The position numbers and the translations under genes are program-made. This document shows, one piece after another, positions 5,977 through 54,447 of a stretch of 64,000 nt of DNA. The first letter of the stretch is position 1. Every line of letters begins with the position of its first letter. The notes below the pieces were generated by a model. The model saw only the letters and a program-made list of their open reading frames with translations. It made no database searches and was not told the origin of the DNA. The stretch lies in NCBI GenBank assembly GCA_017993235.1, contig JAGONC010000005.1, forward strand, positions 62,001 to 126,000, read 5' to 3'. Source of the stretch: Lentimicrobiaceae bacterium (GTDB lineage Bacteria; Bacteroidota; Bacteroidia; Bacteroidales; JAGONC01).

Positions 5977-7335
5977 TTGTCAAAAGCCAAAACTGTTTTT
6001 TTCTGCCAGAATTGTGGTGCACAGTCGGTCAAATGGATCGGACGGTGCCCTTCCTGTGGTGAATGGAATTCCTATCTGGAGGAGGTCATCCATCCGGAAC
6101 GCCGTGATGATCGTTCAACGGCTGGCAGGGAAAAGGAACCCAGGCTGATCACCGAAATCGACTGGTCGGACCAGCAGCGGGTCAGCACGGCCGATCAGGA
6201 GCTTGACAGGGTGCTGGGAGGCGGTCTTGTTCCCGGTTCGCTGGTACTGGTGGGGGGAGAACCGGGCATTGGAAAATCCACCCTGATGATGCAGGTTGCC
6301 CTGAAGATGGAAGGAAAGCGGATCCTTTACGTCTCGGGAGAAGAAAGCGATCAGCAGCTGCGCATGCGCGGTAACCGGCTGGGTATCCGGAACAGGAGCC
6401 TTTATATTCTTACGGAAACCTCCCTGCAAACCATTCTCCATCAGCTTGAAAAAGTCAAACCCGACCTGGTGATCGTTGACTCCATCCAGACACTGCAGAC
6501 CGATGTGGTGGATTCCTCCCAGGGTTCTGTCAGCCAGGTGCGCGAATGCACTGCCGAACTGCAGAAACTGGCCAAGGTCAGCGGCATGCCGGTGATCCTC
6601 ATCGGACATATCACCAAAGAAGGGTACCTGGCCGGGCCAAAAGTGCTGGAACATATGGTCGATACTGTACTCCAGTTTGAAGGTGACCGCCATCATGTTT
6701 ACCGGATCCTCCGTGCGACAAAGAACCGGTTCGGATCGGTGTCGGAACTGGGTATTTACGAAATGCAGGGCAATGGACTGAGGGAAGTTTCCAATCCCTC
6801 GGAGATCCTGTTGTCACAGCGCGACGACCAGTTGAGCGGAGTGGTGATCGCTGCGACCATTGAAGGATTGCGCCCGATGCTCATCGAGACCCAGGCACTG
6901 GTCAGCACGGCGGCGTACGGTACGCCCCAGCGCTCTGCCACGGGCTTTGATGTGCGCCGCATGAACATGCTACTGGCCGTTCTTGAAAAAAGAAGCGGCT
7001 TCCGGCTGGGAATGAAAGATGTATTCCTCAACATTGCAGGAGGAATCAAAGTGGACGATCCGGCCATCGACCTTGCCGTGATCTGTGCGATCCTCTCTTC
7101 CAATGCCGATATACCGGTGAACAAAAATATCTGCTTCGCTGCCGAGGTGGGGCTGTCAGGAGAAATACGCGCGGTGAACCGTATCGAGTCCAGGATCCTG
7201 GAAGCCGAAAAGCTGGGATTTGAAAAGATCTTCATTTCCGGCTATAACCGTAAGAATCTTGATATAAAGAAATTCTCCATCCAGATCATACCGGCCCGGA
7301 GAATCGAGGAAGTTTATGCAATGCTGTTTGGTTAG
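5977..7335 (+). CDS. radA: DNA repair protein RadA
   Basis: Encodes 452 residues. It is a RecA-like ATPase that aids branch migration in homologous recombination. The order is a four-cysteine zinc finger (CQNCGAQ...CPSCGEW, residues ~9-28), Walker A GGEPGIGKST (~91-100), Walker B LVIVDSIQT, the RadA-specific KNRFGS motif (~250), and a C-terminal Lon-protease-like domain. The start is probably the TTG at 5977, since no ATG in this frame lies between the previous stop and the zinc finger. The 3' end overlaps the convergent PepSY gene by 4 bases. Confidence 0.96.
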   Translation: MSKAKTVFFCQNCGAQSVKWIGRCPSCGEWNSYLEEVIHPERRDDRSTAGREKEPRLITEIDWSDQQRVSTADQELDRVLGGGLVPGSLVLVGGEPGIGKSTLMMQVALKMEGKRILYVSGEESDQQLRMRGNRLGIRNRSLYILTETSLQTILHQLEKVKPDLVIVDSIQTLQTDVVDSSQGSVSQVRECTAELQKLAKVSGMPVILIGHITKEGYLAGPKVLEHMVDTVLQFEGDRHHVYRILRATKNRFGSVSELGIYEMQGNGLREVSNPSEILLSQRDDQLSGVVIAATIEGLRPMLIETQALVSTAAYGTPQRSATGFDVRRMNMLLAVLEKRSGFRLGMKDVFLNIAGGIKVDDPAIDLAVICAILSSNADIPVNKNICFAAEVGLSGEIRAVNRIESRILEAEKLGFEKIFISGYNRKNLDIKKFSIQIIPARRIEEVYAMLFG

Positions 7336-7904
7336 CGATTCCCTCCCTTGTAAAGGAAAAGAAAGATCAGGGGTATGATGATCCCCGCCAGGGTTATCCA
7401 TGCGCCACGCCGCGTAATTCCGTTCTTCCCCCTTAAAACGAACAATCCGGTGATCGCCAGCAGGGTGAGTGCGCCTGCATAGATATCCGAAAACCAGGTC
7501 CACCACCTCGATGGATTATAATGCAGGAAATTTACCTGGTGGAACAGCGGCCGCCGCCGGAGGGTCTCAATCGTTCCGGTACCCGTTTCCAGATCAAAGG
7601 TGGCGGTTCCGTGATCAAGAAATACCTTAAGTGTCTGACTGTCAGGAAAATAATGTTTCTTGTATTCTTTTTTCAGCCCTGCCTGACCCAGCATATCCAT
7701 GACCTGTTCCTCAGAAAGAATGTTGGTGGTTTCAGGTATTTTTACGATTACCTGCCAGTTTCTAATAATATAATTCGGATTCCAATCCCTGATATGGTTC
7801 AGTGCAATGCCCGACAGGGCATAGATGATGGTCATCCCAAAAAAGAAATATCCAAAATCACGGTGGATTGCATTATTCCACCTTCTCCACCTGAAAGCAG
7901 CCAT
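7332..7904 (-). CDS. PepSY-associated membrane protein
   Basis: Encodes 190 residues. Transmembrane segments are at residues ~18-37 (FFFGMTIIYALSGIALNH, preceded by the conserved IHRDFG), ~137-155 and ~165-183. The loop between the first two contains a PepSY-like fold (VMDMLGQAGL...LKVFLDHGTATFDLETGTG). LHYNPSRWWTWFSDIYAGAL is the typical PepSY_TM signature. Such proteins often accompany metal or redox transport, but no partner is present here. It is probably co-transcribed with the OB-fold lipoprotein 11 bases upstream. Confidence 0.8.
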   Translation of the reverse strand: MAAFRWRRWNNAIHRDFGYFFFGMTIIYALSGIALNHIRDWNPNYIIRNWQVIVKIPETTNILSEEQVMDMLGQAGLKKEYKKHYFPDSQTLKVFLDHGTATFDLETGTGTIETLRRRPLFHQVNFLHYNPSRWWTWFSDIYAGALTLLAITGLFVLRGKNGITRRGAWITLAGIIIPLIFLFLYKGGNR

Positions 7905-49563: not shown

Positions 49564-50463
49564 CTATTTATTGTAGCTTTTATTGGGGCGAATGTACAGC
49601 GTCCTGTGGGCATAATTAAAGATCAGGTTGAACTGCCTCAGCAGACCGGCTGCCAAAACCGCGTCGGCGCCTGTCTGTTTAGAACGGGCCTCGGCCGGGA
49701 CGAAGGCCGCTTCCAGGTCATGGCTCTCGTAAGGACCGATGATCACCCGGCTGACGTTTCCCTTTTTCCCATAGATATCCCCGCTGAGTCCGCGGCCCAG
49801 GTAAACTTCCCGTATCTCTTCAGGAAGGGTGAACTTTTGCTCCGGCCTTGTCAGCAACTCCAGGGTTTCAGAGGACGCATAGTCTATGTAACAGTCTAAC
49901 AATACCGGTTCCTCATCCGTAACGGATATCCCCACCTTCAAGCAGGGGATGTTGTTCTCGTTGAAGACAAGCGGGATGGCGGTCCATAAGCCCTCCGGCC
50001 GCAACGAATCCGGATTGTGCAGCGTTATCGTCGAGTCGTCGTAATTGATCTCTACTGCAAAATGTCCAAGCAGTGAATTGCCGGTAACACCGTCTGAGGG
50101 GAATCCCCTGAATGCATCGGTCTGAAGCACCACGAAACGCTGGTCCTTGAATTCAACGCCTCCGATCGAGAAGCTCATCGAGTCGGAGAAGATCGCCGAA
50201 GGGGCGCTACCCTGCCCTGCCCCTCCCACGTTGGCCCCGACAGGATTGACCAGATCGATCGAATCGCGGATATCCGGATTATAGATCAGCAGCCCGTCCC
50301 ATCCCATACCGCTATCCAGGATGATCCGCAGCGGCCGTGACAGGCCGACATCCACAGGCAGGATCGTTTTATTGTAGTGTACGGCAAAGGGGAAAGACGT
50401 TTGTCCGTATGAGCCGACTGTGAAACCAAGCATCACCAGGAGAAAGGTCGTTGTTCGTTTCAT
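49564..50463 (-). CDS. Retropepsin-like aspartic protease-fold exported protein
   Basis: Encodes 299 residues with a signal peptide (1-20, ending GSYGQ). Two lobes are visible. The first has ILDSGMGWDGLLIY (~47-60), a DSG catalytic-type loop. The second has LLDCYIDYASSETLELL (~190-206), where the DTG-like triplet is degenerate (DYAS). The FFNYAHRTLYIRP-like end (LIFNYAHRTLYIRPNK) is a common closing strand in bacterial single-chain pepsin-like proteins. It is probably periplasmic; whether it is still a protease is uncertain given the second lobe. It is divergent from the uncharacterised gene at 50795. Confidence 0.78.
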   Translation of the reverse strand: MKRTTTFLLVMLGFTVGSYGQTSFPFAVHYNKTILPVDVGLSRPLRIILDSGMGWDGLLIYNPDIRDSIDLVNPVGANVGGAGQGSAPSAIFSDSMSFSIGGVEFKDQRFVVLQTDAFRGFPSDGVTGNSLLGHFAVEINYDDSTITLHNPDSLRPEGLWTAIPLVFNENNIPCLKVGISVTDEEPVLLDCYIDYASSETLELLTRPEQKFTLPEEIREVYLGRGLSGDIYGKKGNVSRVIIGPYESHDLEAAFVPAEARSKQTGADAVLAAGLLRQFNLIFNYAHRTLYIRPNKSYNK

Positions 50464-50595
50464 TGGAGATATATATTCAGCTTGAGGACTATAAATTTAG
50501 TTTATTTTGGAATGAAACGTCGACAGCATTTACGTTTTTTCAACACGTACTTATATTCAGAATATTTCGAAATCTAAAAAAAGTCACTATTAAAG

Positions 50596-50625
50596 CTTGT
50601 TTTTGATTTTTGTTCCTTATATTTG
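50596..50625 (+). promoter_or_regulatory. Promoter CTTG-N18-TATATTTG
   Basis: CTTG at 50596-50599 and an exact -7 match TATATTTG at 50618-50625. It would drive the small frame at 50694 and the gene at 50795. The rest of the 331-base gap between 50464 and 50794 shows no other clear feature. Confidence 0.5.
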
Positions 50626-50693
50626 ACCAATTCAAGTCACCACAACACCCATCGTCAGAGGATTTCATTGCCGGTTTTTTTTATGGCAGTGAA

Positions 50694-50798
50694 ATGGATC
50701 CGGAGGAATACGTCAACTTCCTTTCGAAAAGACAGATTATTGTTCCGTCTAGTTTCATCATGTACTCCAATATCCACTTTAAATCTCTGTTTCCATGA
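50694..50798 (+). CDS. Possible small ORF coupled to the next gene
   Basis: A 34-codon frame (starting MDPEEYVNFL) whose TGA stop overlaps the following ATG as ATGA. The frame is open further upstream to about 50610 but that part would precede the likely transcription start. Coding potential is uncertain; the overlap is the main argument. Confidence 0.25.
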   Translation: MDPEEYVNFLSKRQIIVPSSFIMYSNIHFKSLFP

Positions 50799-51451
50799 AA
50801 CCAATGGTCAAACGCTACATCAGTGACCTGTTCAGTCAGTTCCATTATTACGCCACCTGGCTGCCAACATCTACGGTAGAGGTGGGCTCTATCGGCACGT
50901 TCACCGGCCGGGAATTCGAGCGGCTGTCGCATCTCCGCAACGAAGGCATTGACTTCGAGATCCAGGAGGACACCAACCGGACCGACCTGGAATACAGTTC
51001 GGAAGGAGCGGTAACCATTAGTCCCAAGGTTTCGGGCAAGGCCCCGGTGGCAGGCAGCGTGCTGACCAAGGCAGATGCCGGTTTCACGGTGGATTTCTCG
51101 CGGAAGCATGCGATCGTCTTCCGTGCCAAGGGAGTGGTATGTTCCAGCATCAAGGATCAGATCAAGCTGGGAAGAGATCTTAAAAAGAAGTACGATGAAG
51201 GCAAGTGGGACAAGAAGTGGGTGGTGATCAAGGAGCTGGTCAGGGCCGAGAGCGCCACGATCCTGATCTCGGGGGCGACGAGCAGCAGGGTGGAGCTCAA
51301 GGCCACGGCCAATGTCGGTGCTGCCCGGCTCGATATTGCGGATGCATCCCTTGCACTGAACGTGGCATTTGAAAAGAACATCGGAACGAAATTCATTGCA
51401 GAGAAGGGACTTACACCGTTGTTTAAGGTGAGGAGAGGGAGGGAGAGATAG
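50795..51451 (+). CDS. Uncharacterised protein; strand order resembles a gasdermin pore domain
   Basis: Encodes 218 residues, no signal peptide. Order as read: N-terminal amphipathic helix (VKRYISDLFSQFHYYA), short strands around VEVGSIGTF and GREFERLSHL, two long strands with a Gly/Ala-rich turn (~70-112, including VAGSVLTKADAGFTVDFS), a charged helix (IKLGRDLKKKYDEGKW, ~126-141), a strand pair starting WVVIKELVRAESATILIS (~145-162), further strands, and a closing GLTPLFKV. This order matches what I recall of gasdermin N-terminal domains, but that is inference from memory. The protein lacks an N-terminal Cys and a C-terminal inhibitory tail typical of bacterial gasdermins. I do not recognise a named family otherwise. 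Confidence 0.65.
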   Translation: MKPMVKRYISDLFSQFHYYATWLPTSTVEVGSIGTFTGREFERLSHLRNEGIDFEIQEDTNRTDLEYSSEGAVTISPKVSGKAPVAGSVLTKADAGFTVDFSRKHAIVFRAKGVVCSSIKDQIKLGRDLKKKYDEGKWDKKWVVIKELVRAESATILISGATSSRVELKATANVGAARLDIADASLALNVAFEKNIGTKFIAEKGLTPLFKVRRGRER

Positions 51452-51474: not shown

Positions 51475-51533
51475 CGGGAAGCGGGAGGCGGGAAGCGGGA
51501 AGCGGGAGGCGGGAAGCGGGAGGCGGGAGGCGG
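51475..51533. repeat. Tandem 7-bp repeat GCGGGA(A/G)
   Basis: Eight units of GCGGGAA or GCGGGAG directly behind the gene ending at 51451. Confidence 0.85.
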
Positions 51534-51906: not shown

Positions 51907-52380
51907 CTATTCATGATCCTCTTCGTGCACCGACATATCCCCCAGCAGCATCCACCTGCCACCCTCCCTGACATAAAATTTTGCCATTTTCCCATAACCT
52001 TCCTGTTGCTTCTTCTGGTCACCCCATGTGAAAGAAACGGTATACCGGAAGAAATAGTCCACCACGGCGGCATCGTCCAGCACCACTATACGGGCGGGAT
52101 TCAACAGGTAAGACTCCAGCTTGAGGTTGTCCTTCATGGAATAATACAGCTGCGAGAGGGTCTCCTTTGAAAGTGGCACAGGCTCCTCCGTGCTCCATCC
52201 CTGGTATTTCGGGTGAATGATCGCGAGTTCGCCGGCAATATCGCCGGCTTTCCAGCAGGTCCAGCTCTCTTCCACCACCTGCCATACTTCCAGCTGTGCT
52301 TTGGTCCATTCCTGGGCGATAAGATGCGTAGCCCCAAAGGTCATCACAGCCACCAATATGGATTTAACGATTTTTCTCAT
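51907..52380 (-). CDS. Exported NTF2/SnoaL-like protein, paralogue 1
   Basis: Encodes 157 residues with a signal peptide ending HLIAQ (22). The mature part EWTKAQLEVWQVVEESWTCWKAGD...GRWMLLGDMSVHEEDHE fits an NTF2/SnoaL-like cone fold (DUF4440-type), with the helix-strand order and a closing acidic His/Glu tail. It has no evident catalytic set. The paralogue at 53971-54447 is about half identical by eye and shares the same promoter layout. The two flank the esterase-like gene at 52535. Confidence 0.85.
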   Translation of the reverse strand: MRKIVKSILVAVMTFGATHLIAQEWTKAQLEVWQVVEESWTCWKAGDIAGELAIIHPKYQGWSTEEPVPLSKETLSQLYYSMKDNLKLESYLLNPARIVVLDDAAVVDYFFRYTVSFTWGDQKKQQEGYGKMAKFYVREGGRWMLLGDMSVHEEDHE

Positions 52381-53970: not shown

Positions 53971-54447
53971 TTATTCATCATCCTCTTCCTCCTCCATCGA
54001 CATATCTCCCAGACACAGCCACTTTCCTCCTTCTTTCACATAAAACTCCACATACTTCCCGCCCACTTCTTCAAGCTTTTTCTGATCCCCCGCCGTGTAC
54101 GTTACCGAATAAAAAAAATAATAATGAACGACGGCTGCGTTTTCCGTGACTGTGATCCGGGCAGGATTGATCATGTAACCATTCACTGTCATCCTATCTT
54201 TCTGCGCCCTGAACCATTGTACGACAGCATCTTTGTTCAGTGGCAACGGAGATTCGTCGTCCCACCCCTGGTACATTGGGTGAAGGGTAATCGTGGCACC
54301 ATCGACATCGCCGGCTTTCCACTTGAGCCAGCTATTCTCCACCACCTGCCAGACTTCCTTTTGTTCTTTTGTCCATTCCTGGGCAAACACTGAGGTTGTA
54401 ATGATGGCAACCATGGCCATCATGGCGAGTTTTAGCAGTGTTTTCAT
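53971..54447 (-). CDS. Exported NTF2/SnoaL-like protein, paralogue 2
   Basis: Encodes 158 residues with a signal peptide ending SVFAQ (23), followed by EWTKEQKEVWQVVENSWLKWKAGD, closely matching paralogue 1. The C-terminus is a run of acidic residues (SMEEEEDDE). It probably arose by local duplication around the esterase-like gene. The 107 bases between the esterase-like stop and this 3' end contain a CTTTCCCTTCTCC-type stretch and no recognisable gene. Confidence 0.85.
   Translation of the reverse strand: MKTLLKLAMMAMVAIITTSVFAQEWTKEQKEVWQVVENSWLKWKAGDVDGATITLHPMYQGWDDESPLPLNKDAVVQWFRAQKDRMTVNGYMINPARITVTENAAVVHYYFFYSVTYTAGDQKKLEEVGGKYVEFYVKEGGKWLCLGDMSMEEEEDDE

What the first reader, a model, noticed from the sequence alone, without database searches (positions are those of the whole stretch)
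50464..51451. Uncharacterised 218-residue protein with gasdermin-like strand order, divergent from a protease-fold gene
The protein at 50795 has an N-terminal amphipathic helix, long paired strands around a Gly/Ala-rich turn, a charged helix, and a strand pair beginning WVVIKELV before a closing strand. That order matches my memory of the gasdermin pore-forming domain. An aspartic protease-fold gene lies 331 bp away on the other strand. Against it: no N-terminal cysteine, no C-terminal inhibitory tail, and the protease has a signal peptide, so it would not normally meet a cytoplasmic partner. The likeness is structural inference only.
Basis: inference. Interest (0 to 1): 0.62.

Follow-up and report, generated by a model that had tools for sequence, protein, structure and literature searches.

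The report
Tail-less divergent bacterial gasdermin
This 218-residue bacterial protein is a distant member of the gasdermins, the family whose membrane pores kill infected animal cells; unlike known bacterial gasdermins it lacks the tail that normally keeps the pore closed, yet the gene is strongly preserved by selection, so it may be switched on in a different way.

Summary
The ORF at 50795-51451 is real: a sister genome holds an 88.5% identical copy, dN/dS 0.06-0.08. AlphaFold2 (pLDDT 84) gives a gasdermin fold. The 13 best Foldseek matches in the PDB are all gasdermins (best E 1.6e-4; VIA Z 10.7); the next entry is at E 0.31. A profile of 19 relatives finds three bacterial gasdermins (bGSDM) first among all PDB sequences (7n50, E 2.3e-4). 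No Pfam, NCBIfam or PADLOC model recognises the window protein; PADLOC's bGSDM model matches 5 of 19 relatives, weakly.

Relatives occur in four phyla. Six of 18 loci lie beside CHAT or caspase (C14) proteases, often with STAND NTPases (6 of the 12 loci counted, 0.4 expected by chance). Fifteen of 19 members carry a 37-74-residue C-terminal tail; the window protein, its ortholog, a tandem paralogue in the sister genome and one further member do not.

The aspartyl protease next door is absent from the sister locus, so it is not a conserved partner. Best reading: a divergent, tail-less bacterial gasdermin under cleavage-independent control. Pore formation and activation are untested.

The parts
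50795..51451 (+). Gene of the 218-residue gasdermin-like protein
   Evidence: ORF; conserved ortholog with dN/dS 0.055-0.079; gasdermin fold; bGSDM first in profile searches of the PDB
50801..50842 (+). Predicted N-terminal amphipathic helix, residues 3-16, position of gasdermin helix 1; no Cys
   Evidence: model; family alignment
50960..51151 (+). First strand group with Gly/Ala/Pro-rich turn, residues 56-119; by analogy holds the first membrane hairpin (inferred)
   Evidence: model, turn of lowest pLDDT at 82-84
51158..51196 (+). Predicted charged helix, residues 122-134
   Evidence: model
51221..51436 (+). Second strand group, residues 143-214, starting WVVIKELV; by analogy holds the second membrane hairpin (inferred); contains the stretch that aligns with bGSDM in sequence
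   Evidence: model; HMM alignments
51422..51451 (+). Tail-less C-terminus: 9 residues (FKVRRGRER) and stop after the conserved TPL motif, where most relatives have 37-74 residues
50610..50794 (+). Upstream leader conserved in the sister genome, with an invariant 20-nt block; not evidently coding

Best explanation
A divergent bacterial gasdermin. Shown by computation: it has the gasdermin pore-domain fold, is remotely homologous in sequence to bGSDMs, and belongs to an unnamed family whose members often lie beside CHAT or caspase-fold (C14) proteases and STAND NTPases. Inferred: the 37-74-residue tail of typical members is an inhibitory peptide that a protease removes, so that the core oligomerises and opens pores in the cell's own inner membrane (abortive infection or programmed death). 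The window lineage has lost that tail and has no linked caspase-fold protease, so its core is probably pore-competent without cleavage and is held in check another way: low or induced expression, a separate inhibitor, or the need for a partner. In the sister genome the partner could be the second tail-less paralogue encoded directly downstream, as in the fungal pair RCD-1-1/RCD-1-2.
For: Gasdermins fill Foldseek ranks 1-13, first non-gasdermin at E 0.31; VIA Z 10.7 and 10.3; same ranking for a second family member. Top three PDB hits of the 19-member profile are bGSDMs, in register. PADLOC bGSDM model matches 5 of 19 members, best E 0.0014. CHAT, C14, STAND, amidase and SIR2 neighbours of homologues; 6 linked of 12 against 0.38 expected. 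Tail absent in four of 19 members and in no protease-linked one. Strong purifying selection on the tail-less form. Second tail-less paralogue in the sister genome. Cleavage-independent heteromeric RCD-1 pores exist in fungi (PMC12881547).
Against: TM-scores are moderate (below 0.5) and rmsd values high. Sequence similarity to bGSDM is weak, and a profile comparison with two bGSDMs found nothing. Twelve of 18 loci, the window's included, show no CHAT or C14 neighbour. A tail-less, uninhibited pore former should be toxic; none of the proposed controls is shown. The window genome lacks the second paralogue. Pore formation is untested.
Confidence: 0.62

Rival explanations
1. Gasdermin fold kept, pore function lost: after losing its tail and protease the protein was recruited as a membrane-binding or regulatory protein.
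For: Tail and protease linkage absent in this lineage; strong purifying selection on a form expected to be toxic; single copy in the window genome.
Against: The core is fully kept, including the strand pairs expected to form the membrane hairpins; the sister genome keeps two tail-less copies.
Confidence: 0.2
2. An ordinary protease-activated gasdermin whose activating protease is encoded elsewhere (for example the CHAT gene on contig C12); inhibition comes from the core or from a separate protein rather than from a tail.
For: The genome holds one CHAT gene, E 6.8e-63; several tailed members also lack a linked protease.
Against: Nothing links that CHAT gene to this one, and the usual cleavage target, the tail, is missing.
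Confidence: 0.1
3. A member of the wider MACPF/CDC-like superfamily rather than a gasdermin, acting as a released antibacterial pore former.
For: CDC-like and CDC entries follow the gasdermins in the structural list, Z 4.4-6.2.
Against: Gasdermins rank clearly higher, Z about 8-10.7 for the best, and are the only convincing sequence matches. No signal-peptide-like start; small size and caspase/STAND context fit gasdermins.
Confidence: 0.04
4. One reading: a gasdermin-like protein activated by the divergent aspartyl protease at 49564-50463.
For: The genes are 331 bp apart and the protease fold is real (PF13650).
Against: No aspartyl protease at the sister locus; signal-peptide-like start; homologues neighbour cysteine proteases of the caspase fold.
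Confidence: 0.03

Closest known systems
Bacterial gasdermins (bGSDM; 7n50 Bradyrhizobium, 7n51/8sl0 Vitiosangium, 7n52 Runella; PADLOC PDLC02986)
   Same: Fold, remote sequence homology in register, small size, and for many relatives a short C-terminal tail and CHAT/C14, STAND, FGE or amidase neighbours as described for bGSDM operons (PMC9612521)
   Different: Not found by the bGSDM model in the window protein; no N-terminal Cys in most members, window included; window protein and three others have no tail; window gene has no linked caspase-fold protease
Fungal RCD-1-1/RCD-1-2 (8jyy, 8jyz)
   Same: Gasdermin fold; not controlled by proteolysis (PMC12881547); two divergent tail-less copies side by side in the sister genome
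   Different: RCD-1 variants are alleles that meet on cell fusion; the window genome has one copy only; no evidence of a heteromer here
Fungal HET-Q1 and its protease HET-Q2 or CHAT relatives
   Same: A gasdermin gene next to a protease gene, CHAT in some cases (PMC10989679), as for six relatives of the window gene; C-terminal inhibitory region of about 40 residues
   Different: Fungal; the window gene has neither tail nor linked protease

Membership tests
Gasdermin superfamily (pore-forming domain) | Gasdermin N-domain fold: twisted antiparallel sheet with an N-terminal helix | tested here: met
   Foldseek ranks 1-13 all gasdermins, best E 1.6e-4, probability 1.00; VIA Z 10.7 over 168 aligned residues, rmsd 15.9; 8.4 over 143, rmsd 3.9, for GSDMB
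Gasdermin superfamily (pore-forming domain) | Oligomeric membrane pores | not testable with these tools
   Needs expression and liposome assays
Bacterial gasdermins (bGSDM) | Sequence homology to bGSDM | tested here: met
   Family profile ranks 7n50, 8sl0 and 7n51 first in the PDB, E 2.3e-4, 0.029, 0.039; remote only
Bacterial gasdermins (bGSDM) | Recognised by the curated bGSDM model PDLC02986 | tested here: not met
   Window protein: no match; own genome: no match; 5 of 19 relatives weakly, best 0.0014
Bacterial gasdermins (bGSDM) | Short C-terminal inhibitory peptide | tested here: not met
   9 residues after the TPL motif in the window protein, 37-74 in 15 of 19 members; inhibition by those tails is itself untested
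Bacterial gasdermins (bGSDM) | N-terminal Cys that is palmitoylated (majority of bGSDMs, not all) | tested here: not met
   No Cys among the N-terminal residues of the window protein; 2 of 19 members have one in that region
Bacterial gasdermins (bGSDM) | Linked caspase-like or other activating protease | tested here: not met
   None beside the window gene and the CHAT gene lies on another contig; 6 of 18 family loci are linked
RCD-1-like cleavage-independent gasdermin pair | Two gasdermin variants that form a heteromeric pore together, without proteolysis | tested here: inconclusive
   Two adjacent tail-less paralogues in sister genome L003; only one copy in the window genome; heteromer not testable here

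The most novel reading that the evidence does not exclude
A bacterial gasdermin subtype that has shed its inhibitory tail and its protease and works without cleavage, in some genomes as a two-gene tail-less pair: a bacterial counterpart of fungal RCD-1.
Probability: 0.3. Interest if true: 0.8.

Novelty: new variant of a known kind. Interest (0 to 1): 0.62.

Why it matters
It widens the bacterial gasdermins to a family that Pfam and NCBIfam lack and PADLOC nearly misses, with neighbours (STAND, CHAT, C14 and SIR2-EAD11 genes) that can be tested as defence systems. The tail-less, strongly selected form makes a specific question testable: can a bacterial gasdermin be controlled without proteolytic removal of an inhibitory peptide?

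Tried and rejected
Aspartyl protease as partner: absent at the sister locus. Small upstream frame overlapping the start codon (ATGA) as an inhibitor peptide supplied in trans: mismatches are not concentrated at third codon positions (16/13/10), so no sign of coding, although a 20-nt block (CGGAGGAATACGTCAACTTC) is conserved. A hidden tail by read-through of the stop: interrupted and dissimilar in the two genomes. Remnant of the sister's second paralogue in the window genome: none. Phage or viral carriage: no match in phages, none in viral contigs. Window protein alone against the PDB: only chance cyclin-H matches. Profile comparison with a two-sequence bGSDM alignment: no match, the alignment is shallow. 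Classical bGSDMs on plasmids as a yardstick: none found with the 7n50 fragment. Prediction of how the tail packs in a tailed homologue: tail pLDDT below 50, uninformative. A search for the sister's second paralogue elsewhere in the phylum: none of 390 genomes, a draw that did not include its own genome as a positive control. Tree: most deep forks unsupported; the tail-less label needs two changes but one origin is not ruled out. CDC-like and MACPF entries appear below the gasdermins in the structural list, as expected for related folds.

Full report
Observation. The ORF at 50795-51451 (+) is as described. In a sister genome of the same genus (L003, a Bacteroidetes MAG) the same gene has the same length and 88.5% amino-acid identity. 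Nucleotide differences fall at codon positions 1/2/3 as 24/9/69, and dN/dS is 0.055-0.079, the lowest of six genes compared at the locus. The gene is real and under strong purifying selection.

Fold. AlphaFold2 with a seven-sequence alignment gives a model with mean pLDDT 84 and pTM 0.79. Foldseek against the PDB lists gasdermins in ranks 1 to 13 (bacterial, mouse, human, Trichoplax and Neurospora), best E 1.6e-4 at probability 1.00; the first non-gasdermin is at E 0.31. VIA-align gives Z 10.7 and 10.3 to two Vitiosangium bGSDM oligomer structures, about 8 to the next gasdermins, and 4.4-6.2 to CDC-like proteins and cytolysins. A second model, of a 254-residue homologue, again has gasdermins on top (Z 10.2 and 10.1). 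TM-scores are moderate (at most 0.49) and several rmsd values are high, so the match is of fold, not of detail.

Sequence. The single protein matches no model in Pfam, NCBIfam, PADLOC or PHROGs above noise and nothing convincing in the PDB. Family profiles do: with 11 members 7n50 (Bradyrhizobium bGSDM) is the only hit, E 0.046; with 12 members E 8.2e-4; with 19 members the top three PDB sequences are bGSDMs, E 2.3e-4, 0.029 and 0.039, with the 7n50 alignment in register. The PADLOC bGSDM model, which finds a 7n50 fragment at 1.9e-28, matches 5 of 19 members at E up to 1, best 0.0014. The family is therefore homologous to, but outside, the modelled bGSDM set. A profile comparison with two Bacteroidota bGSDMs found no match.

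Distribution. Members are sparse: 6 of 395 Bacteroidota genomes with the single sequence, 8 of 295 in the order with the profile, and plasmids of Embleya, Streptomyces, Mesorhizobium and Gemmatirosa. None was found in phages or viral contigs.

Neighbours of homologues. L009: TPR-CHAT gene directly upstream. L012: TPR-CHAT gene divergent and adjacent. L010: a protein annotated SUMF1/FGE with a C14 domain about 1 kb away, and a CHAT gene further on. L014: divergent CHAT gene, an nSTAND1 protein with weak WD40 matches, and an amidase-C14-GDSL protein. L015: a C14-nSTAND1 gene on one side, a C14 gene and then a second large C14 protein on the other. L016: SIR2-EAD11, nSTAND1 and CHAT genes in one run. 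Given the CHAT and C14 counts of each genome or record, 0.38 linked loci are expected among 12 and 6 are seen, P 3e-7; in Bacteroidota genomes alone 3 of 7 against 0.13, P 1.6e-4. The test treats gene positions as random and loci as independent, so it is approximate. Six further loci (L042-L047) show no such gene among the ORFs read or scanned, which makes 6 of 18. Such neighbours are those described for bGSDM operons (PMC9612521).

Anatomy across the family. After the conserved TPL motif, 15 of 19 members carry 37-74 residues, many ending in an acidic and hydrophobic stretch. The window protein, its ortholog, a downstream paralogue in L003 and the L030 member carry 6-16. In the window and its sister the end is identical through the stop codon region, and the DNA diverges after it. 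No member linked to a caspase-fold protease is tail-less. Seventeen of 19 lack a Cys in the N-terminal region; published bGSDMs mostly have a palmitoylated one (PMC9612521, PMC10989679).

The sister pair. Directly downstream of the ortholog, L003 has a 216-residue gene (6704-7354) that is a divergent paralogue (hhalign probability 96.5%; HMM E 6.7e-12), also tail-less. The window genome lacks it. Fungal RCD-1-1 and RCD-1-2 form heteromeric pores without proteolysis (PMC12881547). That parallel is an inference, and the missing second copy in the window genome argues against a strict need for two.

The aspartyl protease. The gene at 49564-50463 (-) has a PF13650 match and a signal-peptide-like start. 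It has no counterpart in the sister locus, where only about 185 bp separate the hydrolase gene from the gasdermin-like gene. It is not a conserved partner.

Conclusion. Shown: gasdermin fold by prediction, remote homology to bGSDM, a family with caspase-fold and STAND neighbours, absence of the tail, strong selection. Inferred: tails inhibit, proteases remove them, cores form pores, and the window lineage uses another form of control. Untested: every biochemical step. What it works like: a gasdermin. What it is filed as: a divergent relative of bGSDMs, not a standard bGSDM, since tail, N-terminal Cys, linked protease and curated model were tested and not met. The paper library holds only open-licence papers, so an earlier description of this family cannot be excluded.

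Noticed in passing
L014 1085-10567: One run holds an amidase-caspase-GDSL fusion, an nSTAND1 protein, a CHAT protein and a divergent tailed gasdermin-like gene: a possible cell-wall plus membrane suicide operon.
   Followed up: partly
L016 9727-15824: Gasdermin-like gene followed by SIR2-EAD11, nSTAND1 and a small CHAT protein with a weak EAD11 match, suggesting two alternative effectors on one sensor.
   Followed up: partly
L003 6704-7354: Second, very divergent tail-less gasdermin-like gene directly downstream of the window gene's ortholog; absent from the window genome.
   Followed up: yes
window 50704-50723: A 20-nt block (CGGAGGAATACGTCAACTTC) about 70-90 bp upstream of the start codon is identical in the sister genome although its surroundings diverge; possible leader or regulatory element.
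   Followed up: partly
window 51475-51533: GC-rich direct repeats (CGGGAAGCGGGAGG type) directly after the gene's stop codon; the sister genome has unrelated sequence there, so the 3' end may be a rearrangement point.
   Followed up: no
L026 1498-2199 and L027 1522-2223 (-): Two intact 233-residue proteins matched by the PADLOC bGSDM model in Bacteroidota, without an N-terminal Cys and with no evident protease in the short flanks held.
   Followed up: no
L046 9270-12718: A divergent family member lies beside an AAA ATPase and RloB gene pair, a defence-type neighbourhood.
   Followed up: no
window 51907-52380 and 53971-54447 (-): Two DUF4440/SnoaL-like genes with signal-peptide-like starts, apparent duplicates, flank an esterase-TPR gene.
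   Followed up: no
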